From Prosopocoilus inquinatus (Eukaryota > Arthropoda > Insecta > Coleoptera > Lucanidae), in assembly GCA_036172665.1 (NCBI GenBank), contig CM069878.1:20718501-20782500 (forward strand): 64,000 bases of DNA, read 5' to 3'. The notes under the pieces are model-generated. The model did no database searches, was not told where the DNA came from, and saw nothing but the letters and a program-made list of their open reading frames with translations. A program made the translations under genes and the position numbers. This document shows positions 4,047 through 60,735 of the stretch, in pieces. Positions within the stretch are counted from its first letter, which is position 1, and the number at the start of each line of letters is the position of its first letter.

Positions 4047-4580
4047 TCAGTGTATAGCGTATAGTACATCAAATATTGATATAGTCCAACCTACAATTTA
4101 GCAAGATTCTTTAGTAAGGTTCTACAACCTCTTTCAAAAGCAATGAATTATTATACACTCTGTCCACGGATTGGGTTTGCAATAGTAAAAAGGTTTTATT
4201 TTAGAGTTTTCGTTTAATTCTTTATAAAAGTTTTTGCTTGTCCTAAAACTTCCAGAAATGTAATTGAAAATAATAAAATTTTTTTCGGTGGCTGAGAAAA
4301 ATAGAAAATTGTATTTCAATTTTTATAAAATATGTCAGTCCAAAAATTTTGAGTAAAATCATGTTAGCCGGTCCTGTCAGTTAATGTTACTAATTTATGT
4401 AAAAAACCTATTCAAGCAAAAATGTTAATTCTAGAGCGAATTGTTTGCCGTAAAATCCCAAATGAGATGTTTAATTAGAATACCGTATGCGGGTAAGTAA
4501 AGAAATTGTTTAAGAAAATTTAATTAAAATTAATTTGAATTAGTTTTTAGACGCAATTCTTAACTTTAACTGAAAATCAT

Positions 4581-4840
4581 AGACTTGTATCCTTTGACAT
4601 AGTGTCCTTGTTCACAAATGTCCCAATTGATCTTTGCATTAAATATTATTGACCAAAAATGGGATGATATAAAAGCAAGTACTGCATTCATAATTTAAGA
4701 AAGCGTTGAAATTATTATTAAACAATACTTCTTTCCAATATAATAACATTTTTTTTAATCAAAAGCACGGAAGCTATGGGATCTGTTTGGTAATGGAGCA
4801 CTTAGAAAATACTGTTCTCAAAACACACCGTTATTATACA
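4581..4840 (+). pseudogene. Penelope-like element RT, central fragment
   Basis: Contains, across frames, SFDIVSLFTNVPIDLCI (the RT A-box of PLEs, with the first catalytic Asp in FDIVSLFTNVP) and about 200 bp later an EAMGS block and MEHLENTVLK. These match the order FDV.SLFTNVP, then GTAMGSPLSP, then ..MEXLE..vL of PLE reverse transcriptases. Several frameshifts and stops disrupt it. The frame is cut after LKTH by a nested TIR element and resumes at 5590. Confidence 0.65.
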
Positions 4841-5500: not shown

Positions 5501-5589
5501 GATATGACATGGATTTCTTAGAATTTTTCCTAGGTTTGATTTCTGCTATCACCTACCAAACGTTGTACAGGTTTTATATTAATATCCTG

Positions 5590-5760
5590 TATAAGAGATA
5601 CGTAAATGACATAATCCTTATCATAAAACACGAAGAGTTAGATCATCAATTAGAATCTTTTAACAGTTTTCATCAATGACTAGAATTTACTAGTGCAAAA
5701 GAACAAAATGGGAAATTAGATTTTGTTGATCTCAGAAAAATAAAAACACAACAAAGAAAG
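5590..5760 (+). pseudogene. Penelope-like element RT, catalytic-motif fragment
   Basis: Reads YKRYVNDIILIIKHEELDH then LESFNSFHQ, a stop, LEFTSAKEQNGKLDFVDL. This is the PLE palm region whose active-site box is normally RYVDD. Here the first Asp codon is AAT (5605-5607), giving YVND, which would abolish catalysis. It continues the RT started at 2155 and 4581. After LDFVDL the frame decays and I cannot follow it to an endonuclease domain. Confidence 0.7.
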
Positions 5761-13924: not shown

Positions 13925-14390
13925 GAATGTCAGGATGTCAAAGTCGCAAATCAAGACGGTGTTTATTTCTTTCGTTGATATCGGAAGCGTGATCCATCAT
14001 GATTTCAGTGCCAATCGATCAGACTGTCAATTCTGAATTTTATTTCAAGGTAATGAAGCATTTGATATCTGTTCCAGAAGTGACTGTTGCATCACCAGAA
14101 CAACGTATCGTCGCATTCACCGTTGATTGTTACTACTAAAGGCCTTCCTGTGGTCTCTAACCCCCGTACAGCCCTGATCTCATCCTCTGCGACTTCTTCC
14201 TTTTCCCCAAAAGATTAAAGGGTCTTGTTTCATAGATGTTGAGGACATCCGAAGGACCATGACGCTTGATCTTAAGAAGATAAGAAGCTCCAGACTGCTT
14301 TTCGGTAGAGAACGGCGTTGGAAGCGTTAGGAAGAAGAAAGTTAGGAAGGAATTATTGTTGAGGCCCATAATATTAATTTTATTGAACAG
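13925..14390 (+). pseudogene. mariner-family transposase remnant
   Basis: Forward frames give SKSRRCLFLSLISE, SIMISVPIDQTVNSEFYFKV and, after stops, PPYSPDLILCDFFLFPKRLKG. In mariner transposases the order is VFFDxxGIVHHEFLP.GQTVN..YY..V and later QPPYSPDLAPCDFFLFPKLK. The second block carries the final catalytic Asp (CDFF). The HDNAPAH block between is unrecognisable. Sequence ends shortly before the retrozyme cluster at 14395, so the retrozyme may have inserted into its C-terminal end. Confidence 0.65.
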
Positions 14391-14509
14391 ATAAAACAGC
14401 GACATCCTACGATCGCTTTTTAACCTGACATTGCAGTAGGATAGACAAATTGAAGCGAATTTGCTACCTAATAAGTCTCCAGTGCCATGTTTTTGATTGC
14501 TGTGAAAAT

Positions 14510-14575
14510 CTCGAGCAGACTCTGTACAGCTATTCAGTCGTGTTTGGGACTTCGTCAGCAGAGACGTAGCTCGAA
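14510..14575 (-). ncRNA. hammerhead ribozyme, degraded (unit A)
   Basis: Minus-strand reading: CTGACGA, AGTC/GACT stem, then GAAT instead of GAAA, then AGCTGTA and CAGA. Loss of the third A of GAAA and shortening of stem II should abolish cleavage. Layout is otherwise that of a type I hammerhead with very short stem III. Confidence 0.55.
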
Positions 14576-14767
14576 ATTCCCACTGCAAACCAAAAACGAC
14601 TTGTCCAATTTATTCGCAATTGCGATGTAATAGTGATAAACAGACAAAACAGCGACATCGGTTTGCTACCTAATAAGTCCTCCAAGCAAGGCGGTTATGC
14701 TTGCTGTCAAATCATAATGAAAGTTTTAAAAACTTTGTTGCAAATCGTTTTTGACTACAGTGAAAAC

Positions 14768-14826
14768 CTCGAGCAGCGTCTGTACAGCTGTTTCACCCCT
14801 GTTTGGGGCTTCGTCAGCGGAGACGT
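14768..14826 (-). ncRNA. hammerhead ribozyme, degraded (unit B)
   Basis: Minus-strand reading: CTGACGA, AGCCC/GGGGT with one G-G mismatch, GAAA, ACAGCTGT, A, then CAGAC. The catalytic core is intact, but stem I and stem II each have mismatches. Cleavage would fall after GTA. Confidence 0.6.
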
Positions 14827-15050
14827 GCAAATCCGCTTCGATTTGTCTAACCTACTGCAATCTCTGGTCAAAAAGCGATCGTAGGATGCCGCTGACAAAT
14901 TGAAGCGGATTTGCTACCTATTAAGTAAGGACTTATTACGTAGCAATCCGTAGCAATTAAATCCGCTTCAACATGTCTTATCTGTTCATAACCATTCCAT
15001 CGCAATTGCGAATAAATTGGACAAGTCGTTTTTAGTTTGCAATGGGAATG

Positions 15051-15118
15051 TCAAGCTACGTCTCTGCTGACGAAGTCCCATACAGGGCTGAAACAGCTGC
15101 ACAGAGACTGCTCGAGGT
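15051..15118 (+). ncRNA. hammerhead ribozyme, cleavage-site mutant
   Basis: Plus-strand reading: CTCTG (15062-15066), CTGACGA (15067-15073), stem II AGTCC/GGGCT with one wobble, GAAA, ACAGCTG, then CA|CAGAG. The U before the cleaved nucleotide is C (GCA instead of GUA), so the A15.1-U16.1 pair is lost and cleavage is unlikely. Stem I CTCTG/CAGAG is perfect. Confidence 0.65.
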
Positions 15119-15280
15119 TTTTGCAATCAAAAACAATTTGCAACAAAATTTTTAAAATTTTCATTATGTTTTGTCAGCAAGCATGGTCGCCTTGCATGGG
15201 GGACTTATTAGGTAGCAAATCCGCTTCAATTTGTCCGTACTACTGCAATGTCAGATCAAAAAGTGATGTGTTTTATTACA

Positions 15281-16116: not shown

Positions 16117-16159
16117 TGGAAAGTTTTTAATCCAACAAGTTAATGGATATTAAATGCTT

Positions 16160-16453
16160 TGTGGTTCTTTTCGTAAGTTACTTTATTTACAACTATTTAC
16201 ATTCTATTTACAAATTACATGGGAATATGGGCATCGCTGTTGCGGCAGGTATTAGACCGATTCCCGAGAGCCTTTGTTGTCGACTGCCTTTGCTTCCTTC
16301 CTCCAGGTTGTTAGAAATTACGCTTAACGTGGTGGTCCCGTATTTAGGATTGTCTCTCGGAATTCTAGAAGGAACATCGGGCGTTGCGTGATCGGTGTAC
16401 CTGGAACGAGGCGAGTCACCGAGTCCAAGAATGGTCTGTTTTGTGCCGCCACA
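16160..16453 (-). repeat. gypsy 3' LTR
   Basis: 294 bp, TGTGGTTCTT ... GCCGCCACA in plus orientation, matching the LTR at 20368-20664 apart from about 13 substitutions and a missing 3-bp AGG-type repeat near 16350. This is the downstream LTR because the element reads on the minus strand. Confidence 0.95.
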
Positions 16454-16470
16454 TCAACCCCTTGCCAGCG
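16454..16470 (-). other. polypurine tract of the gypsy element
   Basis: On the minus strand the bases next to the 3' LTR read GGCAAGGGGTTGA. This purine-rich stretch is in the right place to prime plus-strand synthesis. It is short, and no other candidate is adjacent. Confidence 0.5.
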
Positions 16471-16518
16471 TAAACGCTATCTATATAAAAATAAACAGAG
16501 AAAAAAATAAATAATTTT

Positions 16519-16734
16519 TTAATATCCAGCTTGATATCTGTCGGTGAATCGAACACGACGGCCGGATCTTGTTGAAAGTTTGTTTGGCGGCTCCTCTAAG
16601 TCTGGTACGTTCGAGTCACTGCCTGCTGTCTTTGAACTGGTAGCTGCGGGGTCTAATCTATCGGCCTCAATATAGGCTGGTTTTAAACGGTCAATGGAGA
16701 CTCGCATTTCCTTATCATTTATCTGTAAAATCAT
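16519..16734 (-). pseudogene. gypsy integrase C-terminal tail
   Basis: Continues the integrase reading frame after a single in-frame TAA at 16735-16737. It begins with QINDKEMRVSIDRLKPAYIE, the typical end of the C-terminal integrase region of gypsy elements (vsiDRLKPA), then a low-complexity polar tail ending near RSGRRVRF. The stop lies in a ~15-bp near-perfect tandem duplication (TTATCTGTAAAATCA-type), which probably created it. Confidence 0.75.
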
Positions 16735-17646
16735 TTATCTGTAAACATTTCGCTCAATAACTTTGTACGGTCCGTCATACGAGGGTTGCAGCGGTCGTCG
16801 CACAGCATCGTGTCGAACAAAGACATGCGATGTAGTACGCAAGTCTTTAAAAAAATATATTTTTCTATTTTCGTGACGTGTTCCGGGTGTTGGTCGTAGA
16901 GAACGTAAGCGGTTTCTAAATTGGTGTCCGTAGTCTGCCGTCAACTGTGCGGACTCAGAGCCGAAAAATTTACCAGGAAGTCGTATCGTCGATCCATACA
17001 CCAACTCCGTCGTAGAAGCATTCAGGTCTTCTTTATGAGCTGATCTGATGCCGCGTAAAATAATGGGTAACACGTCGACCCGTGTTTGTGTCTCGCGGCA
17101 TTTTATGGCGGTTTTGAGTTGGCGGTGAACTCTTTCTACTATTCCGTTTGCTGCCGGATGGTACGCTGTCGTTCGTATGTGAGTCGCGCCTATTAATTCA
17201 TTTAATTCTTTAAATAAACGTGATTCGAATTGACGACCCTGATCTGTTGTAATTCGCAGGGGTACGCCGAATCTGGCTACCCATTGTTCCACGAAGGCTC
17301 GCGCCACCGTTGCGGCTTCGATGTCAGGGAGCGGTATTGCTTCAGGCCATCTTGTAGAACGGTCTAGGCACGTTAGCATGTAGCGAAAACCACTGGAAGA
17401 AGGGAGCAGTCCCACGATGTCGACATGGACGTGCTCGAAACGACCTGCGTCGTTCGTAAGTGAACCGATCGGCGCAACAAGATGGCGAGAGATTTTCGCT
17501 TGTTGGCACTGTAAACAGGATCGTGCCCATATGCGGCAATCCAGGTTCATCTTTGGCCATACATATCGCTGAGTCACTAGCTTCTGGGAAGCTCGTACTC
17601 CAGGGTGCGATAAACAGTGCAAGCTGTTGAAAACCTGTCTTCGCAA
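16735..17646 (-). pseudogene. gypsy integrase
   Basis: 303 residues. An HHCC zinc-binding N-terminus is visible (H and H in LHCLSHPGV, then C..C in SCLQCQ), followed by the DDE catalytic core: Asp in VHVDIVG, Asp in ITTDQG and Glu in NGIVERVHR, with the usual spacing between the last two. It then runs into LVYGSTIRLPG and YDGPYKVIER, the GPY-type C-terminal domain. All catalytic and zinc residues appear present. The frame is interrupted upstream of this segment (RNase H ends at 17683) and downstream by the TAA at 16735. Integrase inserts the cDNA into the host genome and accounts for the 4-bp target duplication. Confidence 0.9.
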
Positions 17647-17682
17647 AGCTTCGACAACGTAAGGTCGAGCTGTACCGAGCTG

Positions 17683-18390
17683 TTACTGTAGTAGCTGCTT
17701 CAGCTCCAGGTCGTTGCGCTGAGCTGCGGCTAACACCTTGCTGTTAACGGCGGTTGAGATTTCTTCGATTCGGGAGAGGGTGTCAGCTGCATCATTTTCA
17801 TTCCCTTTTACATGACGAATATCCGTTGTAAATTGGCCTATGAAATCTAGGTATCGGAACTGCCTTGGTGTGCACTTGTTTGGCTTTTGTTGAAATGCGA
17901 ATGTTAGTGGTTTATGGTCAGTATAAACCGTGATCGGTCTTCCTTCGATAGCGTATCGAAACCGTTTGATCGCGGCGTACACAGCCAGAAGTTCACGATC
18001 ATAAGCACTATATTTCTTCTCAGCCGAATTTAAAGTCTTTGTAAAATATGCCAACGGTTGCCACGCGCTACCATTAAGTTGCTGAAGCGTTCCTCCGATT
18101 GCGTAATCGGACGTATCCACCATCATCGATAATTGTGCTCCAGAGACCAGAGGGTGTGCCAATAAAGCGGCGTTGGCTAGACTGTCTTTGACGGTCGTAA
18201 ACGCGTTTTGTGCTTCTATTGTCCATAATACCGGCGCGTCTTTTCTTAGCGACCCGTCTAATAACACGTTAAGTGGCTGTTGTAATCGCGCAGTTTCCGG
18301 AATGAAATGACGGTAAAAATTTATCATTCCTAGGAAACCACGAAGTTCTTTCACTGTCTTTGGTTGCGAAAATTTGGAAATAGCTTCCAC
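17683..18390 (-). pseudogene. gypsy RT C-terminus and RNase H
   Basis: 235 residues. The first 40 (VKELRGFLGMINFYRHFIP) are the RT thumb/connection block of gypsy elements. The RNase H domain follows, with acidic residues in MMVDTSDYAIGG, YDRELLAVY, VYTDHKPL and NDAADTLSRI, in the expected order. RNase H removes the RNA strand after minus-strand cDNA synthesis. A frameshift separates it from integrase at about 17650-17685 and from the RT palm at about 18400. Confidence 0.9.
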
Positions 18391-19256
18391 CCAATCGGGT
18401 ACGGTTTCGTACCATTTCTATTTACTAAATATCCTAAGAAACATTTCTTTTCGCCCGAATACACATTTGTCCGTGTTAATCACAACACCGTACTCAGTGA
18501 GACGCTGAAATAACTGACGTAAATGTTGTTTATGTTCCTCAGCGTTTTGCGATGTCACTAAAATATCGTCTAAGTACGCTTAAGAAAAATCTAGTCCCCG
18601 CAACGTTTCGTCCATAAACCGCTGAAAAGTTTGTGCTGCGTTTCTTAAACCGAACGGCATACGTGGAATTCGTACAGTCCAAAGGACGTCGTGATGGCTG
18701 TCTTTTCTACATCTTCGCTTGCTACCGGTATTTGATTATAAGCTCGCACTAAGTCGATAGTGCTAAAAATTCATCCTTGCAAATCTATGCGAAAAATCTT
18801 CGACATATGGAATAGGATATCTATCGGGAATTTTCCGGTTATTAAGCGCACGATAATCACCACACGGTCGCATTTCGTTGTTTTTCTTCGGCACCAGGTG
18901 TAGCCCAAGAACTTTTAAATGGTTGTATGACACCTTCGTGCAGAATCATTTTAAATTCTTATTTCGCTGATGTCATATTTATGTGATGCACGACATTGTG
19001 CTTCACCGTATTTCCAGCACCTGGTGGGCGTGTGATTTCAGGAAAGTCGAGCAGAATACTTTCATACTCCGATTCTACTCTAATTGTTCTTGTTAATCGT
19101 AGTTCTTACTTCGGCGCCACGCGTTGCCCAGTGGGTGGTATTGTCGAGTATTCGCTTATTGCGAACGTCCACTAACAATCCAAAATATGAAAGAAAGTCT
19201 ACGCCGATGATGGGTATGTCCACGTCTGCCACTGCGAAACGCCACACAAAATCATG
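18391..19256 (-). pseudogene. gypsy RT fingers/palm, degraded
   Basis: No long frame survives, but minus-strand reading near 18480-18580 gives AYLDDILVTSQNAEEH and later NTDKCVFGRKEMFL. The YLDD active-site box is at 18565-18576. An in-frame stop lies just upstream of it. Further 5', fragments around 18640-18900 fit the RT fingers. This is where the element is most decayed, with several frameshifts. Confidence 0.8.
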
Positions 19257-19481
19257 TCACAATCCTAAATTTAAATTTAATACAGTTGTCCCGTAAGTCG
19301 TAATCACGGATTTATTTGCCGCATATAACTTATAATTAGTTTTAGTCCTATTGCCGTGTGTCTCTAACCGAGGAAATACGCACAGATCAGCACCAGTGTT
19401 TACTAGAAACGCAATTTTTGTTTTCTTGTCGGTGATATAAAGGCGGCGTGGTTTCGGGCCATCACTGTCTACCGCCATCAA
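19257..19481 (-). pseudogene. gypsy aspartic protease, active site mutated
   Basis: 74-residue frame containing IAFLVNTGADLCVFPR. In retroviral-type proteases this box is hydrophobic-x-DTGA. Here the catalytic Asp is Asn (codon 28, 19398-19400), which would inactivate maturation of Gag-Pol. Upstream in another frame a C..H-type string (CWYYQ.FGD.ATRC..PC) near 19500-19580 fits the linker seen in insect gypsy elements before the protease. Confidence 0.8.
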
Positions 19482-19609
19482 CGTGCGACCCGGGTGTTTT
19501 CCGCAGACCGGCTACAAGGGGACCGACATCGCGTTGCAGTATCGCCGAATCTCTGATAATACCAGCATTCGTCCCCATTGTTTTCTGCCCGTGTACTAGA
19601 CCTGAAGGG

Positions 19610-19888
19610 TTACCTTTGGCGATGAGATGCGTGACGACTTCGTTCAGACTCCATCTGCGCCGGCGAAGGTCTACGCGATTCTAGTTTATCTAAACGTTTA
19701 ATTATTTCTTGCAGCGTAGAATGCAAACCTTGATCGCCCTTCGAGACTGCTGAGCATTGGCTTACCGGAGAAAGCATTTCGTGAATTTTGTCCGCTGATT
19801 CTGCCATTGTACTTAGCGTAGCGTATGATTGCACGACAAGAATGGCGCGCGTATTTTCGGGTAGGCGTCGCAACCATATCGCTTTCAC
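19610..19888 (-). pseudogene. gypsy gag, C-terminal part
   Basis: 92 residues: LWLRRLP-type motif (IWLRRLPENTRAILV), then a helical stretch with SADKIHEML and a coiled LDKLES segment. It continues gag from 19885-20331 in another frame, so one frameshift lies near 19888. Confidence 0.75.
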
Positions 19889-20331
19889 AAAATCTTAGTA
19901 GAACCCGCTAACCTTCTAATATGTCGCAAGAATCGAGAAGATGTACGGTCTCCGATCTCTGCACGTTCTAGCAATTGTTGGATTCGCTGGTCTTGCGATG
20001 CTGAGAGACGGTCAATTAGCGCTTTCTTAATGCCGTTGTACTTATTTTCTACCGGCGGATTTGTGAGTATGTCCTCCACCTCTTCTAGCTGCGCAGGATT
20101 CAAGGCTCCGATGATATGGAAGTATTTTGTATAATCTGCGGTTATTCTGGCTTGTGCGAATTGTGCTTCCAATTGAATGAACCACAGATCCGGTTTAGCG
20201 GTCCAAAGTGGAGGAATGCGAACAAGTACGCGCGCGATATCACTGCCTATCATTCCCGGTTGCTCTTCTGTATTGTTAGAGAGCGACATCGTTATAAAAA
20301 TCGAAGACGCGTTAAAAATTTTTGAACACAC
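19885..20331 (-). pseudogene. gypsy gag, N-terminal part
   Basis: Coding probably starts at the MSLSNN Met near 20289 rather than the first Met of the 148-residue frame. It contains VRIPPLWTAKPDLWFIQLEAQF, ITADYTKYFHIIGAL, NPPVENKYNGIKKALIDRLS and SRFLRHIRRLAG, the conserved Gag domain of many arthropod gypsy elements. Gag forms the particle in which reverse transcription occurs. The frame breaks at its 3' end, so no Gag-Pol can be made from this copy. Confidence 0.85.
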
Positions 20332-20346
20332 TAATTCACGGCATAT

Positions 20347-20364
20347 ATCACGTCGGGGTCACCA
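20347..20364 (-). other. gypsy primer-binding site
   Basis: On the minus strand, 3 nt after the 5' LTR, the sequence is TGGTGACCCCGACGTGAT. It starts TGG, the complement of a tRNA CCA end. The implied tRNA 3' end has an acceptor strand CGGGGTC plus discriminator A and a T-stem CACGT. I cannot name the tRNA species with certainty. Confidence 0.8.
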
Positions 20365-20367
20365 ATT

Positions 20368-20664
20368 TGTGATTCTTTTCGTAAGTTAATTTATTTACAA
20401 CTATTTACATTCTATTTACAAATTACACGTGAATATGGGCATCGCTGTTGCGGCAGGTATTATACCGAATCCCGAGAGCCTTCGTTGTCGACTGCCTTTG
20501 CTTACTTCCTCCAGGTTGTTAGAAACTACGCTTAACGTGGTGGTCCCGTATTTAGAAGGATTGTCTCTCGGAATTCTAGAAGGAACTTCGGGCGTTGCGT
20601 GATCGGTGTACCTGGAACGAGGCGAGTCTCCGAGTCCAGGAATGGTCTATTTTGTGCCGCCACA
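20368..20664 (-). repeat. gypsy 5' LTR
   Basis: 297 bp, the upstream LTR of the minus-strand element, beginning TG and ending CA in plus orientation. It should hold the promoter and polyadenylation signals. I did not identify a TATA box with confidence. Confidence 0.95.
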
Positions 20665-20777
20665 GCTTGTTAAAATACTACAGAAGATCTAACTTCATTA
20701 CAAGTTGAAATTTATGCCAGTAGATACGCAAGAAAATCAATTTTGTTTATTAAATTACAATTACAACTCAGATTTTA

Positions 20778-20944
20778 AACAGATAAAATAGCGACATCTT
20801 ACCATCGCTTGTTGACCTGACATTGCAGTAGGATAGACAAATTGAAGCGGGATTTGCTCCTAATAAGTCCCCCGTGCAAGGCGGCCATGCTTGCTGTCAA
20901 AGCATAATGAAAGTTTTTAGAAAAAAATTGTGCAAATCGTTTTT
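20778..20944 (-). repeat. retrozyme fragment, 3' part, abutting a PLE
   Basis: Begins at the common family boundary (AACAGATAAAATAGCGACA) and runs through GCAAGGCGGCCATGC to CAAATCGTTTTT, where similarity stops before the hammerhead. RNA sense is minus. PLE reverse-transcriptase coding on the plus strand starts within a few bases, giving a head-to-head junction of two truncated retroelements. Confidence 0.75.
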
Positions 20945-20949
20945 AGACA

Positions 20950-21698
20950 TTAGACATCGACATTTATCGTAAAGATACAAATACAAGCCGGTTTATAATT
21001 AATGAATCTTAACATTCTGTCCAACATAAACTCGTGACTCTTAATTTTTTAGTAAATAGATTACTGGCTTTTCCACTCACTAAACCCCGATATGATAAAG
21101 AACTTAATTGTATTACAAATGTTGCGGTTCATAACGGTTATACCCCCAAATAGTACATAATGTAATTAGAAAGATTAGCTATAGGAAACAGGTCCAAAAT
21201 TCTAGCACTTTAACGGAAACCTCATCTCTAGGAAAATTTGTTAAAATGCCTTTCGATCCGCTTTGCACCAAAGGTTTAAAACATACTTTTAAAACCCAAA
21301 ACTTACGATTAGGTTTTTCAACTAACAATACCATAAAGAATTTATTGGGAAACCCGAAAGATAAAGTTGATGTTGAACAGAAATCTGGAATTTATGAAAT
21401 TAACTGTAACGAATGTACTAGTAAATACATTGGACAAACAAAAAGAAATATATTAACACGCTGTATAGAACATTTAAGTCACTACAGGTATAATAGGTTT
21501 GAGAAATCAAGTGTTGCACAACATATTTAAAATACAGGACATAGTATTATTAAGGATAATTTAAAACTCATTAAGGAAGTGTCAAATAATAGGGAATTAA
21601 ATGCTTACGAAAGTATTTTTATTCGGAAAAATAAAAACAATTTAATGAATTCAGACAACGGACCAACACCTAATTCTGTATTATTTGATTTACTCTGA
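20950..21698 (+). pseudogene. Penelope-like element: RT C-terminus and GIY-YIG endonuclease
   Basis: Starts in the RT C-terminal region (LDIDIYRKDTNTS near 20950, then LVNRLLAFPLTKPRYDKEL near 21050). Several stops follow, then the endonuclease frame from 21246. In that frame GIY is at residues 48-50, a C..C pair at 54 and 57, YIG at 61-63, and TRCIEH around 71-76. This is the cysteine-containing GIY-YIG nuclease typical of PLEs, which nicks DNA for target-primed reverse transcription. One TAA at 21528-21530 interrupts it, after which the same frame continues (NTGHSI, ESIFIRKNKNN) to a TGA at 21696-21698. The copy is 5'-truncated and dead, though less decayed than the one at 2-6 kb. Confidence 0.85.
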
Positions 21699-21910
21699 TA
21701 TGTAGGTTGTTATTTGATGGTTCGTATTTAGATATATATATCTTAAGTCAAAAATTGGCCGCTAGATGTCGTACATGTATGTCAGAAATCATCCGCTAGA
21801 TGTCGGTATCTGAATCATATATAAAGTGGTGTGAGAGACAGTTAAGCGCATTTGTACTAGATGTTTGATAAGGAGAAGATTCTCCGAGATAAAATTTTCC
21901 TAAAGTGCCT
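21699..21910 (+). other. PLE 3' region with hammerhead-like hairpin
   Basis: Non-coding stretch after the endonuclease stop. TTGATAA (near 21865) is followed by a 6-bp stem GGAGAA/TTCTCC and GAGA, resembling a mutated hammerhead (CUGANGA, stem II, GAAA). Two CCGCTAGATGTCG-type repeats occur at about 21760 and 21793. PLEs often carry hammerheads in terminal repeats, but this one departs at core positions. Confidence 0.35.
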
Positions 21911-23439
21911 TTAACTTGGGGTGTGTGGGTGTGATTTGCTCTCGTCTATAGGTTATTTTTTGACTATTTATACCTAATATATATATTTTAATTTATTTTT
22001 CAGGATTTTTAGGTTTTTAGGTATCAAGTAGAAGGGAATTATATACTTATTTATACGTTAGAATAAGAAGTTTTCTCGGGGTCTTTGGACTATTAATTTT
22101 CGCATTTCCGTGTTGTTTGGTTAGCTCTTATTTGTAAGGTTTTCTGACAGTTAATTTTAGGTGTTCACATATTTTTTTTCCGAACATATATAGTTTATTT
22201 TAGATTTTCACATATTAGTTAATATTTTAAACGTTATGTATGTTATTGCATACACAGATTTCAAAAATATTCAATAGTAGCGCCACAATCCGCCCACGCT
22301 CTGTTAGGTCACCCTGTATTGTTTTACACTCCTGTATTATACTGTAAAACGTAAAATACAGTATTAAATAATATTTTATACGTCAATATTATATACAGCA
22401 TTATACCTACGTATTGTACTACATTAGGCAAAAAGTATGAAACTCTAACATCCCGGGCTTTGGCCAATAAATTATGTGGATTGTAAATTATGCATATTGA
22501 AATATTCAATTCAATATATAATAGCTCGAAAACATACAAGGGTGACTTGTGGCCATTTGTTCCAAACTCTTAAGATCCGTTTAACTTTAAGCGCCGCTTA
22601 GATTACTACACTAATGTTATGTAATCGCAAAAGTCGCAATAAAAGCAATACTTAAATTTAAACACGGTTTAAGTGTTTGGTGCAATTACCATTAGCTACC
22701 TTTCGCACTGACCCCTTCAATTGTTTAAGGAATAAGGCGAAGCTTAAAGTTAAATTCTGATTGAAAAACTTGCGTTACATGAGATAAAGTATATAAACTC
22801 ATTTATAAATCGACAGTGACTTCAGAGTGAAGTTTATGAACACAACCCTGTTGTTGCAGTTCAGTATCTTTTTTATCAAATATGTGCATAAATGAAGGAC
22901 TAAATTATTTCGTCTCTTTGACTTTGTAACAGGATATATATGTATGTATATACAAGAAAATACATAGGAATGATCTGTCTGATATGGATCCTTAATATTC
23001 ATATCTACAATATAATGCATCATCTGTTATCAAAGACATTGTGATGTATAGTACTTAGCTGGTGCAAGATAGTGTGAATTTAATGTTCCTATCATTGTTG
23101 CATACGTGAAACTGTCAGCTCGCAATTGGATCAATAAAACAATGAAGTCACATGAGAGGATCTGTAATTTGTTATATAACTTAGAGTCGAAAATTAATAA
23201 TTACTTTCTAAGACTGTAAATATGACTTAATATTGCAGAGTACCAAAACGAGGTAATTAAATGTGTCGTAAATTGTATGTTTACATAAAAATTTTTGGAT
23301 GCTTTTATGGATTTTAAATTCTTAAACTTGGTAATTGTATTGAATGTTTGTACAATTCTTTGTTTATTTTGAGTTAACAAACCTGTGAATCGTCAAGATA
23401 AACGAGTCACAATTACACAAGATGAAGGAATGAAGATGA
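21911..23439. other. unassigned AT-rich DNA
   Basis: A CACCCTGTATTG MITE-type end lies at about 22313. The 3' end of the PLE may lie before 22320 but cannot be fixed. No gene supported. Confidence 0.4.
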
Positions 23440-23801
23440 CTGCAATGTCAGGTCAAAAGACGATCGTAGGATGTCGTTGTTTTGTCTGTTCATCACTATT
23501 GCATCACAATTGCGAATAAATTGGACAAGTCATTTTTGGTTTGCAGTGGGAATTTCGAGCTACGTTTCTGCTGAAGAAGCCCCAAACAGGGCTGAAACAG
23601 CAGTACAAAGGCTGCTCTAAGTTTTCACTGCAATCAAAAACGATTTGCAACAAAGTTTTTAAAACTTTCATTATGCTTTGACAGCAATCATGGCTGCCTT
23701 GCATGGGGACTTATTGGGTAACAAAATCCGGTTCAGTTTGTATATCCTACTGCAATGTCAGGTCAAAAAGCGATCGTAGGATGTCGCTGTTTTATCTGTT
23801 C
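23440..23801 (+). repeat. retrozyme, 1.17 units, hammerhead strand is plus
   Basis: Starts CTGCAATGTCAGG (23440) and the same block recurs at 23750, giving a 310-bp period with the first ~50 bp repeated. It ends CTGTTTTATCTGTTC at 23801, which is the common family boundary in the other orientation. One full hammerhead is included. No target-site duplication was found. Confidence 0.85.
23556..23617 (+). ncRNA. hammerhead ribozyme, core intact
   Basis: CTGAAGA at 23571-23577, stem II AGCCC/GGGCT with loop CAAACA, GAAA, ACAGCAGT, A, then CAAAG. All invariant core positions fit a hammerhead (position 7 is variable). Stem I near the core is weakened (TTCTG against CAAAG), so activity may be reduced. 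Predicted cleavage is after the A of AGTA. Confidence 0.7.
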
Positions 23802-26711: not shown

Positions 26712-28689
26712 TATAACAAAAAAGTCTTATTTTTGCCTCCTTTACTTGCCCTAGAAATTTTGCAAAGGAATTTTTCAACACCCTGTATACATGTTGATTG
26801 AAAAAATGCATATTAAAATTATATTGTGACGTAAGACTCCGTGTTCTCTCTTTCTCATCTTTTTTCCCCGCCATTACAGATCCTGGAAACTTGATTTACT
26901 TTACTGGATACAGTATTTCGATTATCACTGTAAACAAACAAGTCATCAATCACGTACGCCTGCAACAAATTTTACTGTGCCGATTTCTTTCGTATATTTA
27001 CGAGCTCGGAATCATGAGCACTCTCTGAATTATTGGACGCAATTATTGTCCGTACAATTGATATGAGAACCCCTGTTTTATAAAAGTAAATGCACCATTG
27101 TTGTCACTTAGGATTAATGAAAAATTTGTTTCATTTTTGTGAAGATCTTTCTGCCGCCCCTACACGACCAGTTCAAAATTAGACGTACATTTACTTCTTA
27201 TTTCACTGATTATGATGATCTGAAAGAATTATTTTCGAATCATTAATGTAGAGTAAAACAAAAAACGATCTTTCTAAGTGTAAACAAGTAATGATTCTGT
27301 TGACCTTTCGTGCAATGTTTCTGCTGCACACAATATGTAGCTGTTGCAAGTAAAGCCGGAGCAAAGCATTTTTCCGAGACAACGGCGCGGGTTTTTAATT
27401 TAATTTAGAAGAATAAAGAGCTTTTGTGACTCGAAGTTTATCATTTCGTTGGGAACTTTTATTTGGGACGTCGCATAATAAAATCGAGCCGGCTCATTTG
27501 TAAAACAAATTCGTGTTTTGTTTAATTTATTGACGATTAATTGCGACGCTAAAAAGTTGTTTCCTCTCCACTGCGGGCTTTAATCAGGACCGTTTACTTA
27601 ATCAGGAGCCTTTTTATTACCCAACCAAAAACGAAATGTAGTTGTTGCATTACTATCTAGATTTAAAGAAATAAAAGGTTTTTTCTTCGTATAAATTATA
27701 GGAGGCTACTAATTACTTTGGAACGTTCCCGTTTCATTGGGTTAAAGTATTCTTACTTGAAAACTTACAACCAACGCTCGACGTTGATTACAAAAGTAAA
27801 TGTTGGAAAGCAGCCGCCTTTGTTTTAATTTTTAAAAGTTGCAGAATCGCCTCCAAGTCTTATTATCTTCATCTCGCTCTTTCTAGAAGATCTGAAATGT
27901 AGTTCAAATTAAATGAGCTCGAAACTTTTTCAATTTTCTAGTTTGTTTATATAACGTAATAAGGTTTTTGCTTATAAAACGCAATGTGTTACGGTAAATA
28001 AGACGAGAAGAGAAAGCAAGGTATTTAACATCGCTAATTGGATTTTCGTATGCTTCCCAACTGTTTCCCAGTTCTAGTCTGTAAGAAAAACTTTGATACG
28101 AAATTAGCGAGGTATCATTAACTACAATTTATTTATTCAGCCCGTACAGGATGATTCAAAGTAAGTGTCTGATCCATTAATCACAGGTAGTGCACGAAAT
28201 AAAAAAAATGTAGGCACACATGATAAAATGTGGGCTCGATTTAAAATGAAATGCATTGACGATTTTGTTGGTAAGCATTAGGATAGCTTTACTGCGTCTC
28301 AAAAGAAATAAACCCTCGGGAAGTAAAACGAAACGCGAACGTTTAGCTTGGACTGCAACGATACAATATTGTTGTTTTTTTTTTACACAAAGATTAAATA
28401 ACGCGTAGTCAATTCATTTTTTACGGAAATCAAATAGCGTACGTGCATTTTTCAACTATTTCACGATAATACTCAGTCGTGGCGTAACGAGCGTCCGTGA
28501 GATTCATTGCTAACTTTGGATTATTCCGCATATGTCTAATCGAATGTATCGTGGCGAGCTTTCGCCAACTTCACGCCGCAAGTTTTGGAAAGCTTCCCCG
28601 AAGTCCTGAGAAACTCCTGAAATACTCCGGTGTGTATTGTCTAAAAATACTCTACCGCCTATGAATTCTGCTGTGGTCCGGCGTTCGTA
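26712..28689. other. unassigned DNA
   Basis: A CACCCTGTATACATG repeat-end motif is at about 26780. The remainder, including a moderately GC-balanced stretch at 27.3-28.0 kb, shows no exon or element boundary that I can support. Confidence 0.4.
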
Positions 28690-29486
28690 TACGTGGGCTG
28701 CTGGAAAATTTTCTGCAATCTAGTAGACGTACCTCTTTCAGTGACGAATTTCGTGAAGGTCGTCCATCAACTTCTGTTGTTGCCACTAATGCTGTGCGTG
28801 AAATGCTTGAGCGAGATCGACATGTGACATACCGAGAGATTCAAGCATCCTTACGCATTGACATGAAAGCAATACACCGGATTTTGCATGATCATTTGAA
28901 CGTATGAAAGCTTTGCAGTCGTTGGATCCCACACAATTTAACAGAAGCGCAAAAGCAGGGTCATGTCAAATGGTGCGAAGCCAGAAAGTAAACAAAGTTG
29001 TCCGTCACGCAGCGCTGCGAAGCAAATGATTGCTTGTTTCTTTGGTTTAACTGGACATGTGGCAACCGTGGCTTTAGAGGATCGAAAAACTGTGAATGCT
29101 GATTGGTATACTACAATTTGTTTGCCGGAAGTCATCGATCAAATAAGAAGAAACAATCGAAATCGACGAAGTATTCTCCAACATGACTACTCCAGTTCTC
29201 ACTCAGCCCGTCAAACAGTTGATTTTTTGTCCAATATGTTGAATTAATGACTCATTGTCCAAATTAACTTGATTTATCACCTAATGATTTCTTTTTGTTC
29301 CCAATTATTAAAAATAAAATGCGTGGTGAACGATTTTCGTCGGCTGAAGCAGCGGTTGAAACATTCCGCACACTGGTTTCTGAGGTACCGTCTTTAGAGT
29401 GGAAAACGTGCTTTAGAAATTGGTTCGAGCGATTTCATATGCGTTTTTTCGTACCGTTTCCAGAAATTTTTCCAGCAGCCCACGTA
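28690..29486 (+). mobile_element. mariner element with internal deletion (797 bp)
   Basis: Perfect or near-perfect inverted ends TACGTGGGCTGCTGGAAAA / TTTTCCAGCAGCCCACGTA, each flanked by TA (28688-28689, 29487-29488), the mariner target site. Length is well below a full mariner (~1.3 kb). The 5' untranslated region and first coding part are missing, and another gap lies in mid-gene. Confidence 0.9.
28732..29470 (+). pseudogene. mariner transposase, deleted and frameshifted
   Basis: Starts within the DNA-binding domain: RTSFSDEFREGRPST and MLERDRHVTYREIQASL, IHRILHDHLNV, then WIPHNLTEAQKQ. After a deletion near 28985 it resumes in the catalytic domain: TGHVATVALEDRKTVNADWY, then QHDYSSSHSARQTV with the second catalytic Asp, and DLSPNDFFLFP with the third Asp, spaced as in DD34D mariners. 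It ends near the right inverted repeat. The first catalytic Asp region is deleted, so the protein cannot be active. A frameshift or stop follows LNV. Confidence 0.85.
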
Positions 29487-30867: not shown

Positions 30868-31011
30868 CAGTAGTGCGTTGTGTAAGACTCTACCTCTACA
30901 AGACCATGCAAGGGACAAATGTTTGTTTATTAACATTAATATATGTAATATTCGGTCAAGCGCCATGGCTTTACCGTAACAATATACCATTATTTCGACT
31001 ATAAGCATTAG

Positions 31012-31574
31012 AACATATAAAATAGCGACATCTTACTATCGCTTTTTGACCTAACATTGCAGTAGGATAGACAAATTGAAGCGGGATTTGCTCCTAATGA
31101 GTCCCCCTTGCAAGGCGGCCATGCTTGCTGTCAAAGCATAATGAAAGATTTTAGAAAAATTTTGTGCAAATCGTTTTTGATTGCAGTGAGAACCTCGAGC
31201 AGCCTCTGGACAGCTGTTTCAGCCCTGCTTGGGGCTTCTTCAGCAGAAACGTAGCTCGACATTCCCACTGCAGACCAAAAACGACTTGCCCAATTTATTC
31301 GCAAATGCGATGTAAGAATGATGAACATATAAAATAGCGACATCTTACTATCGCTTTTTGACCTAACATTGCAGTAGGGTAGACAAATTGAAGCGGGATT
31401 TGCTCCTAATGAGTCCCCCATGCAAGACGGCCATGCTTGCTGTCAAAGCATAATGAAAGATTTTAGAAAAATTTTGTGCAAATCGTTTTTGATTGCAGTG
31501 AGAACCTCGAGCAGCCTCTGGAGGCTGCTCGAGGTTCTCACTGCAATCAAAAACGATTTGCACAAAATTTTTCT
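31012..31574 (-). mobile_element. retrozyme insertion, 1.6 units with fold-back end and 11-bp TSD
   Basis: The 563-bp insertion is flanked by ATAAGCATTAG on both sides (31001-31011, 31575-31585). One 312-bp unit (31012-31323) is followed in tandem by a second that stops exactly at 31520. The sequence then reverses, and 31521-31574 is the inverted copy of 31465-31518 with a 2-base centre. RNA sense is minus, so the 3' end of the RNA lies at 31012. Position 31520 is exactly one period from the predicted ribozyme cut in the first unit (31208/31209). This fits reverse transcription of a self-cleaved RNA to its 5' end. Confidence 0.85.
31194..31259 (-). ncRNA. hammerhead ribozyme, best-preserved copy
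   Basis: Minus-strand reading: GTCGAG, internal loop, TTTCTG, then CTGAAGA, stem II AGCCC/GGGCT with loop CAAGCA, GAAA, ACAGCTGT, C, then CAGAGG, internal loop CTG, CTCGA. All core residues (CUGANGA, GAAA, U16.1, H17=C) are present. Stem I is CAGAG/TTCTG with one wobble, then CTCGA/TCGAG. Stem III is A-C..G-T with an AGCT loop, or can pair between two molecules because ACAGCTGT is self-complementary. Predicted cleavage lies between 31209 and 31208 on the minus strand. The A10.1-U11.1 pair is less usual than G-C. Type I hammerheads with tiny stem III are known from newt and schistosome repeats and from PLEs and retrozymes. Confidence 0.85.
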
Positions 31575-31585
31575 ATAAGCATTAG

Positions 31586-40508: not shown

Positions 40509-40775
40509 GAACAAATAAAACAGCGACATCCTACATTTTTTGACCTGATATTGCAGTAGGATAGACAAACTAAAGCGGATTTGCCTCTAATAAGTCCCCC
40601 ATGCAAGGCGGCCATGCTTGCTGTCAAAGCATGATGAAAGTTTTAAAAAATTTTGTTGCAAATCGTTTTTGATTGCAGTGAAAACCTTCAGCAGCCTTTG
40701 TACAGCTTTTTCAGCCCTGTTTGGGGCTTCATCAGCGGAGACGTAGCTCAACATTCTCACTGCAAAACAAAAACT
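40509..40775 (-). repeat. retrozyme, single partial unit
   Basis: Starts at the common boundary (GAACAAATAAAACAGCGACA) and runs through one hammerhead to CTGCAAAACAAAAAC, where it stops. RNA sense is minus. No target duplication was seen. Confidence 0.8.
40686..40750 (-). ncRNA. hammerhead ribozyme, core intact
   Basis: Minus-strand reading: CTGATGA (canonical U at position 7), AGCCC/GGGCT with loop CAAACA, GAAA, AAGCTGT, A, then CAAAGG. Stem III has lost a pair and stem I near the core is mismatched (CTCCG with CAAAG), so efficient folding is doubtful. Confidence 0.65.
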
Positions 40776-43450: not shown

Positions 43451-43580
43451 TTGCGTTCAGATTGCGTTGGAGTTTCTCGAAGTACTCTTCTGCTGATAAG
43501 GCCCCAATGAAAGCCGAAATAGCTGTACAAACAGTGGTAGAGGACCTCACTGCAATCTGAGCTGACTTGCTACAATCTTA
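43451..43580 (+). repeat. old, diverged retrozyme copy
   Basis: Only the ribozyme region is alignable: TTTCTCGAAGTACTCTTCTG, then GCTGTACAAACAG and CTCACTGCAATC. It is much more diverged than the other copies, so the family has a long history in this genome. Confidence 0.65.
43473..43555 (+). ncRNA. hammerhead ribozyme, decayed ancient copy
   Basis: CTGATAA at the CUGANGA position (invariant G8 replaced by A), stem GGC/GCC with an enlarged loop, GAAA, TAGCTGT, A, then CAAACAG. Outer stem I TCTCGA is no longer well paired. The G8 change should inactivate it. Confidence 0.55.
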
Positions 43581-44478: not shown

Positions 44479-45383
44479 CTTTTGTTTCGTGTTGCTATGT
44501 GGTCAGTTGCAAAATAATTTCCTTCGAACAGGACATCGTCCTCGAGAAGTTCGAGGATTTAAACGAGTGGATAATAGTATCGATAGCTGCGCGTCTGCAC
44601 GTTCCTTACGGAGGTTAGGACGTTCCTTGATGACAGGTCACTGGGGCGGACAGCTGGCACGAGGTAGAAATTTATTGTTTATTTAATTCTTAATTTTATA
44701 TGATTATTAGTGTTTATTTTCAAAATCTTTAAGTGCTCCTTGTAAAAGACTTAGTAACTGCATTTCTAACCACCACAGTTGTTCACATTTGAGTTTACAA
44801 TTGGAAGTCGCAACATTTGAACGGGAAACTTATTCTCGTACATATATTTTCCAGAATTAATTACCAAACGTTGGTAAAAGCAAAAATCACAGGGCATAAA
44901 ACTAATTGAAAATGGGATGATTCATATAATTACCTCATTCAAATTTATACAATAATTTGTCGGCCTACATATTATGCATAATATTTGTTGTATTACAGAT
45001 ATCAGCAGCGACAGTTGTGCACTCACAATTATTAAAATATGTGACCAGAATAATTAATACGAACTATAATTTAATGCTATATCGCAACGACAATGAATTT
45101 AATCGTAAATTGTAAAATATGTGCACACACCGTTGAAATATCAAACAGACTATTAAAGCGCAAATTTATGCGTTATATTTTTATTATTTAGTTGCGGGAA
45201 TTTTCGAACGCGATGCAAACTACGGGGTTCCCGTGAATTATTACGCTCCTTGCCCCGGATAACCGGACTTAGCCGCACACGTGATAATGCTAAGGATAAA
45301 TACGCGCTCCGAGAAATGCAACGGGCTTGCACGTTTTGGTTTTTCTATTTTCAAACTAAAAAAAAAAAAAAACAACAAAATGA
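44479..45383. other. unassigned DNA
   Basis: No supported feature. A poly-A run of about 14 bases lies at 45359-45372. Confidence 0.4.
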
Positions 45384-46695
45384 TGGCCGGTTTCGCAAAG
45401 CTTCGTTAAATATTTAAGTTCTGATTAACTCTGTAACGAATGATTAAATAGGAAAACGACTGCATTTAACGATGATTAAATTAACGATGATTACTAAACT
45501 GCTCGATCTCTAATCGGTCGTCAAATAGTCTTAATGCTCCGTTAAGTGTTTCACAAAGCTCGATTAAGAGATAACGCTTCGTTTACTTATGTCTAATCAG
45601 GTGTTAGATTAATCGATAGAATTCCAGCGATTAAAAAGTAACGAGTGAATTTTCCATAGTTATTATAAAGCTTTTTTGATATAAAAATTCCACACATATT
45701 TCTATAAAATAATTATAATTTTATTTAAAAATGTAACGTACCTTAAATATGAAAAATAATGACATTTCTGTACTTTTTACTCACTTGGTTTATTGATTAA
45801 TTTTTACGACACTATTTCAGAAATTATTTTCAACAACAAACAATTCAAAATTATTTCAAAATGTCTACAACCTCACTTTCTTCTCTGACGATAAAGAAAT
45901 GCCTCCTTAAGTTATAATTCATTTTATAAGAGACAGAAATAATCCTTTTAATGATTTGGATGATAATGAATTTAACGTTTCGCTTTTCCAACGGAGTTAT
46001 GGAACTCTTTGGTCCCACACTAAAACCTGCAGTAAGCAAAAATAAATTTATTTTATGGTACAAATCAGTTGCTGATAAACTTACATTATTATCCACTGAA
46101 ATACTTCAACAGCTGATTCCTGATACTTTCAGAAACCATCGATACGTAGAATAATTCATCGTGTCACTCATCTTATTGTAAGGCGAAGCAAACAGTTAAT
46201 TAAATTGCCCATAGAAGTTCCGCAAGTTAACATTAGGCTTTTCTCGTGTCATTGGCACCACATATTGTACCCCACGTTAAAATTATTTCACCTGGTGGTA
46301 ATCCTGCTGAGCTGTACCACAACAGAAAATGTGTCTTTGCCACATATGTTCAAGTAATTCAACTGCACTAAAGTTTCCTTCCTCCCTTTCTTTTTTCCTT
46401 TTTCATTTTTAAAAATCATTAACTGCACTAATGCGAAGAATTTAAGATGCATTTATTTATTTTGAGTTTCTAACCTCACACTACCTGACTACAGACCTTA
46501 CCCCATGACGGACAGATTACTAGCGGTATCAAAGTGGCAATTTTTCGATGTTACCAAACGTAAACTCCAATTAGTTAATCAGAGCTTAACATAATAGTTT
46601 TTTGTTTTGTGAAACAGCATCAAATTTTTAACACTGATTAAAGTTAACGGTTGATTAGTTAATCAACGCTTAAACAAAGCTTTGCGAAACCTGCA
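45384..46695 (+). mobile_element. PIF/Harbinger DNA transposon, copy 2 (1312 bp)
   Basis: Inverted relative to copy 1 at 2812-4046 and similar to it along its length. Ends TGGCCGGTTTCGCAAAGC and GCTTTGCGAAACCTGCA. The right end has mutated, and no target duplication is now visible (flanks TGA and CTT). The transposase remnant is on the plus strand. Confidence 0.75.
45925..46265 (+). pseudogene. PIF/Harbinger transposase fragment (copy 2)
   Basis: Plus-strand frames give RDRNNPFNDLDDNEF, then NGVMELFGPTLKPAVSKNKF and, after a stop, the IVSLILL and LPIE-type region, homologous to copy 1. The same frameshift between NEF and NGVMELF occurs in both copies, so they probably derive from an already dead master copy. 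Confidence 0.65.
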
Positions 46696-48826: not shown

Positions 48827-48849
48827 AATTACCATTGTAGTGAATAGAT

Positions 48850-48921
48850 AAAACAGAGACATCCTACGATCGCTTTTTGACTTGACATTGCAGTGGGATA
48901 GACAAATTTAAGCGGATTTGT
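48850..48921 (-). repeat. retrozyme 3' fragment
   Basis: About 72 bp, from AGATAAAACAGAGACATCCT through GACAAATTTAAGCGGATTTG. Starts near the common boundary and is strongly truncated, ending before the hammerhead. Flanks TTGTAGTGAA and TTGTAGGTGAA may be a damaged target-site duplication. Confidence 0.7.
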
Positions 48922-60621: not shown

Positions 60622-60735
60622 ATAAAAAAAACGTTTCTGCTGAAGAAACCCCAAGCAGGGCTGAAACAGCTGTCCAGAGGCTGCTCGAGGTTCTCACTGC
60701 AATCAAAAACGATTTGCACAAAATTTTTCTAAAAT
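60622..60735 (+). mobile_element. short retrozyme insertion with 12-bp TSD
   Basis: A 113-bp piece of the retrozyme, containing the hammerhead and 54 bp beyond it, lies between two copies of TATAAATTTTAT (60610-60621 and 60735-60746, with 1-bp overlap of ambiguity). It starts with an extra ATAAAAAAA before the matching sequence ACGTTTCTG. It splits a mariner-family transposase. The right end CAAAATTTTTCT is the same internal point at which the inverted arm of the 31-kb copy ends. Confidence 0.85.
60631..60692 (+). ncRNA. hammerhead ribozyme, truncated stem I
   Basis: TTTCTG, CTGAAGA (60640-60646), stem II AACCC/GGGCT with one mismatch, GAAA (60663-60666), ACAGCTGT, C, then CAGAGG. Core intact, cleavage predicted after C60674. 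The upstream strand of outer stem I is missing because the insertion starts there, so only the inner 5 bp can form. Confidence 0.75.

What the first reader, a model, noticed from the sequence alone, without database searches (positions are those of the whole stretch)
31012..31574. Hammerhead-ribozyme retroelement (retrozyme) family with a ~310-bp unit, dispersed across the window
Seen: at least nine copies of one unit, with two tandem arrangements giving periods of 310 bp (23440 to 23750) and 312 bp (31011 to 31323). In one orientation each copy that includes the region has CTGA(C/A/T)GA, a stem AGCCC/GGGCT, GAAA, ACAGCTGT, A or C, and CAGAG pairing back to CTCTG or TTCTG, with a second helix TCGAG/CTCGA beyond an internal loop. 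Known: this is the secondary structure of a type I hammerhead with very short stem III, as in PLEs, amphibian and schistosome repeats, and metazoan retrozymes. Inference: a small non-autonomous element whose multimeric RNA self-cleaves, may circularise, and is reverse-transcribed.
Basis: partly seen in the sequence, partly recalled or inferred. Interest (0 to 1): 0.93.

Follow-up and report, generated by a model that had tools for sequence, protein, structure and literature searches.

The report
Ribozyme repeat hitch-hiking on Penelope elements
A 312-base repeat with a predicted self-cutting (hammerhead) ribozyme is scattered in many copies through this unidentified, probably insect, genome, and many of its insertions carry the same mirror-image, two-ended scars as the genome's own Penelope-like retrotransposons, so it is likely copied and pasted by their enzyme, which would answer how such animal ribozyme elements move.

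Summary
The repeat is real. The unit (31011-31322, ribozyme on the minus strand) occurs at eight loci of the window; a genome search gave 98 matches (40 of 130 candidates scored), and an older subfamily has 3354 candidates. Its core matches Rfam Hammerhead_1 over the full model but below threshold (23.8 vs 34 bits). A strict descriptor is intact in 34 of 42 full-length units, with some compensatory changes in stems I and II. 'Retrozyme' is right in kind; cleavage and circles are untested.

The new result is insertion anatomy. The 31012-31572 copy has a 13-bp target-site duplication, an inverted arm and two different 3' ends. Of 24 classifiable head-to-head insertions, 21 have one arm starting at unit position ~175 and the other at ~313; 16 of 24 have significant 10-14-bp duplications. 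Young Penelope-like elements of the same genome show the same asymmetry in 14 of 16 loci. One window insertion appears to fuse a unit arm to a Penelope arm. Likely mechanism: a Penelope-like enzyme primes cDNA on both target strands from two fixed RNA sites. Inner 5' ends do not cluster at the ribozyme cut site, and unit and Penelope ends share no significant sequence.

The parts
30999..31011 (.). 13-bp target-site duplication CTATAAGCATTAG, copy 1
31573..31585 (.). target-site duplication, copy 2
31011..31322 (-). full 312-bp unit (A2), ends at 3' site 2 (31011)
31323..31522 (-). 5'-truncated tandem copy of the unit (A1); starts within 2 nt of the predicted ribozyme cut site
31521..31572 (+). 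inverted (head-to-head) arm, outer end at 3' site 1 (unit position ~173-175)
31203..31249 (-). predicted type I hammerhead: stem I 31244-31249 with 31203-31208, CTGAAGA 31237-31243, GAAA 31217-31220, palindromic stem III ACAGCTGT 31210-31217, predicted cut between 31209 and 31208
31159..31290 (-). extended stem I: long interrupted hairpin arms enclosing the hammerhead
31011..31052 (-). stem-loop next to 3' site 2
   Evidence: pairing kept in 93.7% of cells, but no covariation beyond shuffles
23439..23801 (+). copy B: 53 bp of tail plus one full unit, older subfamily, ends at site 2
14385..15270 (.). head-to-head cluster of copies F1, F2 (-) and C (+), decayed
40509..40774 (-). copy D, 5'-truncated, ends at site 2
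20778..20946 (-). copy E: unit arm ending at site 2, abutting head to head the Penelope fragment
20947..22227 (+). 5'-truncated Penelope-like fragment (end of RT, GIY-YIG endonuclease, part of the 3' region); with E it looks like one composite insertion, candidate 9-bp duplication ATTTTAAAC at 20772-20780 and 22224-22232
60622..60734 (+). copy G: 113-bp insertion with a hammerhead (one stem II mismatch), ends at site 1, 12-bp duplication TATAAATTTTAT at 60610-60621 and 60735-60746
48842..48920 (-). copy H, tail fragment ending at site 2
43477..43557 (+). copy I, 73% identical relative of the hammerhead region (core CTGATAA, predicted dead)
   Evidence: a CUGANAA core did not cleave in PMC8490949 (passage)

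Best explanation
The 31012-31572 feature is one insertion of a short dispersed repeat (312-bp unit) that carries a predicted type I hammerhead ribozyme, and it was likely written into the genome by the reverse transcriptase/endonuclease of a resident Penelope-like element, which would prime one cDNA from each cut target strand at two different fixed sites of the repeat's RNA. SHOWN by sequence: the unit, its tandem and head-to-head arrangement, two recurrent 3' ends (site 1 at unit ~175, site 2 at unit ~313), 10-14-bp duplications, the same kind of anatomy in near-identical (so young) Penelope elements of this genome, and in both a hammerhead motif with an 8-nt palindromic stem III. INFERRED: transcription through tandem copies; self-cleavage, perhaps as a double hammerhead through the palindrome or with protein help; use of the RNA in trans by the Penelope enzyme; staggered cutting of both target strands, giving the duplication; head-to-head joining of two truncated cDNAs. 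NOT TESTED: RNA circles.
For: (1) Hammerhead: RF00163 Hammerhead_1 over model positions 1-45, 23.8 bits, E 3.6e-4 for the 91 bases searched; 21.4 bits in copy G, 13 in copy C. Strict descriptor intact in 34 of 42 full-length units at 25 loci. 7 of 19 pairs with both sides changed against 2.1 in shuffles, 0 of 500. Catalytic core plus stem II less variable than the rest, 0.52 against 1.53 variant loci per position, P 0.013, shifted mask 0.006 (this set was chosen). (2) Anatomy: 21 of 24 classifiable head-to-head events have one arm at site 1 and one at site 2 (binomial P 1.4e-4 against one half); 16 of 24 have a duplication above the 99% null, all 16 among the asymmetric ones. (3) Filled site: L066 has a unit array with outer ends at ~U313 and U176 inside a Penelope copy, flanked by the 16-bp repeat GATAATAAGATTGTGA; the relative L067, without the array, has the stretch with one mismatch. 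(4) Penelope here: 12 of 57 scored matches have uninterrupted 784-788-aa frames from query residue 1 or 11; 14 of 16 fetched loci have one short and one ~40-bp longer 3' end, head to head, with 12-18-bp direct repeats at the ends. (5) Two Penelope families carry hammerhead motifs with palindrome ATACGTAT (L050, L067). (6) Composite of a unit arm and a Penelope arm at 20778-22227. (7) Published Penelope anatomy agrees: inverted pLTRs with an optional 'tail' on one of them and 8-10-bp duplications (PMC3846280, passages); two RT start sites, extension on both strands (PMC11167929, main text).
Against: No Rfam match reaches the gathering score; copy D gives no hammerhead match at all. The hammerhead fold of the isolated core is ~10 kcal/mol less stable than an alternative fold in a model without tertiary contacts or dimers (-8.5 against -18.3). 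Inner 5' ends do not cluster at the cut site (3 of 64 within 3 nt, 1.4 expected); the match in the window insertion is a single case. The core alone is not significantly conserved (P 0.08), nor is the palindrome. Slid-structure controls show up to 6 pairs with double changes and the alignment was fitted to the structure, so covariation is moderate. Unit and Penelope pLTR share no significant sequence; their two 3' sites lie ~40 bp apart in Penelope and ~138 in the unit. Two events have equal ends at site 1 (L017, L031) and one at site 2 (L026); 6 head-to-head events could not be classified and 16 clusters have one arm only. No Penelope coding sequence lies within the 39 loci fetched by the unit search. 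The site windows (160-190; 305 or more) were set after seeing the data. In the anole, ribozyme mutants still insert in vitro (PMC11167929).
Confidence: 0.78

Rival explanations
1. The unit is the pseudo-LTR region of an autonomous Penelope family that was not found, and the copies are solo pLTRs or internal-deletion derivatives of it.
For: Same anatomy as Penelope insertions. The stretch from an ATG inside the unit reads MSSYVSAEEAPSRAETAVQRLLEVLTAIKN, with third codon positions the most variable (0.173 against 0.088 and 0.111 per compared site; 12, 7 and 9 of 30 columns); in the anole the hammerhead overlaps the ORF start (PMC11167929). E abuts a Penelope fragment.
Against: The peptide found no relative (X-padded query, 17 candidates) and no similarity to the fetched Penelope proteins. 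An array of seven full units in a row has no ORF between them (L012). Neither Penelope family examined has unit sequence as its pLTR.
Confidence: 0.15
2. A different reverse transcriptase (LINE type) moves the unit as an ordinary SINE.
For: 3'-anchored copies with a stem-loop near site 2; duplications of 10-14 bp are also made by LINE machinery (general knowledge).
Against: Head-to-head arms with two alternative 3' ends, one each, are what the Penelope elements of this genome show. LINEs of this genome were not examined.
Confidence: 0.1
3. The hammerhead is a relic: the repeat moves as a Penelope satellite without ribozyme activity.
For: Alternative fold more stable; inner 5' ends ignore the cut site; ribozyme mutants of the anole element still insert in vitro (PMC11167929).
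Against: Core plus stem II less variable than the rest, compensatory changes, descriptor intact in 34 of 42 full-length units.
Confidence: 0.2
4. The match to a hammerhead is chance in an unrelated repeat.
For: No Rfam hit above the gathering score.
Against: 0.0 strict hits per shuffle; full-length model match; conservation and covariation.
Confidence: 0.03

Closest known systems
Metazoan non-LTR retrozymes (PMC7229834: abstract, results parts 1-2 of 3, discussion read)
   Same: Size within 170-400 nt, GC below 50% (43.5%), tandem and dispersed copies, type I hammerhead with a weak stem III and palindromic tetraloop, duplications longer than 4 bp, Penelope elements in the same genome
   Different: Two fixed 3' ends used one per arm, and head-to-head arms like Penelope insertions, are not described in the parts read; RNA circles not tested here
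Penelope-like elements (PMC3846280 passages; PMC11167929 main text)
   Same: Head-to-head inverted arms, a longer 'tail' end on one arm, short duplications, hammerhead near the RT start sites
   Different: No RT-endonuclease ORF; no significant sequence similarity to the two Penelope families examined; ~138 instead of ~40 bp between the two ends
Amphibian hammerhead repeats / axolotl retrozymes (PMC7229834 passages)
   Same: ~330-350-bp unit, stem III of one or two pairs with a palindromic or tetraloop cap, more active as dimers
   Different: Different sequence and host; activity and circles were measured there, not here
Schistosoma W elements (PMC8490949 passages)
   Same: Short repeats with type I hammerheads, putatively mobile
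   Different: Different sequence; no helper named in the passages read
Plant LTR retrozymes (PMC4918200 in search listing only; features from PMC7229834 and PMC7761336 passages)
   Same: Hammerhead in a non-autonomous retroelement
   Different: Type III hammerhead, LTRs, 4-bp duplications, Gypsy-family helper proposed

Membership tests
Metazoan non-LTR retrozyme | small (170-400 bp), non-autonomous, no long ORF | tested here: met
   312-bp unit; longest stop-free stretch over it 103 aa, spanning two units, no Pfam family at E up to 10
Metazoan non-LTR retrozyme | type I hammerhead | tested here: met
   by descriptor, conservation and full-length model match, though below the Rfam gathering score
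Metazoan non-LTR retrozyme | tandem and dispersed copies, target-site duplication over 4 bp, no LTR | tested here: met
Metazoan non-LTR retrozyme | RNA present as self-cleaved linear and circular molecules | not testable with these tools
   no RNA data
Penelope-like element | RT plus GIY-YIG ORF | tested here: not met
   no such ORF in the unit; no Penelope coding sequence in the 39 loci fetched by the unit search, +-1 kb
Penelope-like element | head-to-head arms with a longer end on one arm, short duplications | tested here: met
   21 of 24; compare 14 of 16 Penelope loci of the same genome
Rfam Hammerhead_1 (RF00163) | score at or above the gathering cut-off | tested here: not met
   0 matches in the window; best 23.8 of 34 bits
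Rfam Hammerhead_1 (RF00163) | conserved core and three helices | tested here: met
   model positions 1-45 matched; 34 of 42 full-length units intact
Viroid-like or delta-like RNA agent | RNA-only replication | not testable with these tools
   genomic copies only

The most novel reading that the evidence does not exclude
Penelope-type enzymes and the retrozymes they carry insert by an obligate two-site, two-strand scheme: each cut target strand primes cDNA from a different one of two fixed sites on the RNA, and the two cDNAs are joined head to head. The retrozyme copies this two-site geometry without sharing its helper's sequence, and its ribozyme frees units from tandem RNA rather than setting cDNA ends.
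Probability: 0.45. Interest if true: 0.8.

Novelty: new variant of a known kind. Interest (0 to 1): 0.62.

Why it matters
Which enzyme moves animal retrozymes is left open in PMC7229834 (discussion read), with Penelope elements called a strong candidate. Here the insertion scars themselves point to Penelope, in a genome whose Penelope copies are near-identical and have uninterrupted ORFs, and the one-short, one-long rule gives a sharp prediction for how this little-understood class of retroelement integrates. In the listings of searches, and in the parts of papers I read, I saw no description of such ends for retrozymes; most listed papers were not opened, and key papers on Penelope hammerheads and Terminons are not held.

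Tried and rejected
Cut site as cDNA end: the inverted junction of the 31012-31572 insertion falls within 2 nt of the predicted cut, which looked like a fossil of cleaved RNA; over 64 inner ends it is not a rule, so rejected.

Unit as the start of a Penelope ORF: attractive from PMC11167929, but the peptide found no relative and no similarity to the fetched Penelope proteins; kept only as a rival.

Hammerhead in the window's own Penelope 3' region (21780-21960): no hammerhead match. Relatives carry one further downstream (L067; in L066 its palindrome reads ATACGTAC), beyond where the window fragment ends.

Other collections: no exact match to two unit patterns in viral contigs nor to one in bacterial and archaeal genomes, as expected for animal DNA. 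Rows dropped before counts: L028 (same insertion as L027), clusters within 5 bp of a locus end, HSPs at least half covered by a longer one.

Full report
What was checked. The finding claims a dispersed ~310-bp hammerhead repeat at 31012-31574. The unit, its copies and both periods are there. The ribozyme strand is the minus strand. The feature is one insertion, 31012-31572: a ~200-bp partial unit and a full 312-bp unit in tandem, plus a ~52-bp inverted arm, inside a 13-bp direct repeat.

The hammerhead. Rfam at gathering thresholds finds nothing in the window. With the copy searched alone, Hammerhead_1 (type I) is the best match among 4227 families, full model length, 23.8 bits against a cut-off of 34. 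Other copies: G 21.4 bits, C 13, B only HH9 at 15 bits, D none. A strict descriptor gives one hit in 64 kb and 0.0 per shuffle. Among 42 full-length units from 25 loci, 34 are intact. On 108 model-fitted matches (69 distinct) 94.6% of pair cells pair, against 22-48% for slid partners; 7 of 19 pairs have changes on both sides (three in core stem I, two in its distal part, two in stem II) against 2.1 in shuffles, 0 of 500; slid controls reach 6, so this is moderate support. On the seven window copies alone it was weak (2 pairs, 35 of 500). Catalytic core plus stem II vary less than the rest (P 0.013 and 0.006), a set chosen after the core alone gave P 0.08. Stem III is an 8-nt palindrome; small Penelope hammerheads are reported to cleave as dimers (review passages; the original paper is not held). 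As a lone molecule the core prefers another fold. The whole unit is strongly self-paired, z -6.9.

Genome-wide copies. The own genome (649.6 Mb, 173 contigs) gives 130 candidates for this subfamily, 40 scored, the best 99-100% identical, and 3354 candidates for the copy-B subfamily, 40 scored, about 90% identical to B apart from itself. The search tool says such counts are lower bounds; the two sets may overlap. I fetched 39 places with 1-kb flanks.

Anatomy. After dropping one duplicate and clusters cut by locus ends, 30 head-to-head events remain, the window's included. In 21 one arm ends at unit 166-186 and the other at 308-313; 3 have equal ends (L017 and L031 at site 1, L026 at site 2); 6 are unclassifiable; 16 further clusters have one arm only. 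16 of the 24 classifiable events have duplications of 10-14 bp above the 99% null, and all 16 are asymmetric. Copy G (60622-60734) is a one-armed 113-bp insertion ending at site 1 with a 12-bp duplication. L066 against L067 shows a filled and an unfilled site. Inner 5' ends are scattered.

The helper. A Penelope-like fragment lies in the window (20947-22227): GIY-YIG just under the Pfam cut-off (19.3 of 22.6 bits), 103 relatives at E up to 0.001, the named ones from beetles and a hoverfly; a second search adds a leafhopper and a lacewing. Hence the guess of an insect host, although the common insect telomere repeat was not found. The genome gives 6318 candidates for the Penelope query, 57 scored, 12 with uninterrupted 784-788-aa frames. 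In 16 fetched loci, 14 have one arm ending about 44 nt before the ORF start (three of them 4-8 nt later) and the other about 40 nt further on, head to head, with 12-18-bp direct repeats at the ends; no null was computed for these repeats. The other two are a copy without inverted arm (L054) and one with ends elsewhere (L055) (classified by eye). Published work reports a tail on one of the inverted pLTRs (PMC3846280, passages) and two RT start sites with extension on both strands, without a strand difference in start site in vitro (PMC11167929, main text). Hammerhead motifs with palindrome ATACGTAT stand in both Penelope families looked at (L050 and L067).

The composite. Copy E's unit arm ends at site 2 on the outside and on the inside lies within about 5 bp of the first Penelope codons. 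Beyond E, tblastn gives only two weak hits (E 0.009 and 0.014) and blastn none against the fetched Penelope loci, so E does not look nested in the Penelope copy. A 9-bp repeat flanks the pair at 20772-20780 and 22224-22232, close to where homology to other family members stops (22227). A random 9-mer has a 4% chance of a match in that 1.8 kb, and another 9-mer of the same flank matches at 23310; suggestive, not proof. The Penelope arm here ends before its pLTR hammerhead, which is not the usual end.

Reading. The repeat is a retrozyme in kind and its insertions follow the Penelope pattern. That Penelope protein does the work is an inference from shared anatomy, co-residence and one composite; no significant sequence similarity between unit and pLTR was found.

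Noticed in passing
window 16158-20664: LTR retrotransposon: two ~297-bp repeats 94.6% alike around RNase H, integrase and DUF7041 frames. Described only.
   Followed up: no
window 28665-29244 (+): Fragments that look like a mariner transposase (recalled resemblance; Pfam gave only a sub-threshold HTH hit).
   Followed up: no
window 2814-4049 and 45381-46694: A 1.3-kb repeat in inverted orientation, 87% identical.
   Followed up: no
window 4560-4646 and 5587-5820: Further degraded Penelope RT fragments by tblastn, E about 1e-5 to 1e-6.
   Followed up: no
unit copy A2, about 31134-31262 (-): ATG-started reading MSSYVSAEEAPSRAETAVQRLLEVLTAIKN over the hammerhead, most variable at third codon positions; a similar reading with a stop in copy I, by eye. 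No relative found.
   Followed up: partly
unit U126-139 and Penelope pLTR about -69 to -52 (L050): Shared short motif TCGAGG..TTCTCACT just downstream of both hammerheads, seen by eye; not tested for chance. Could be a common protein-binding element.
   Followed up: no
L012: Array of seven full and two partial head-to-tail units, 98-100% identical to the window unit, running off the fetched stretch.
   Followed up: no
L027/L028; C15 and C6 places: Apparently the same insertion on two contigs (C13 and C11; C15 and C6): probably duplicated contigs in the assembly.
   Followed up: no
own genome: No (TTAGG)6 match in 650 Mb, so the common insect telomere repeat seems absent; the control pattern read backwards matched once per strand.
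   Followed up: partly
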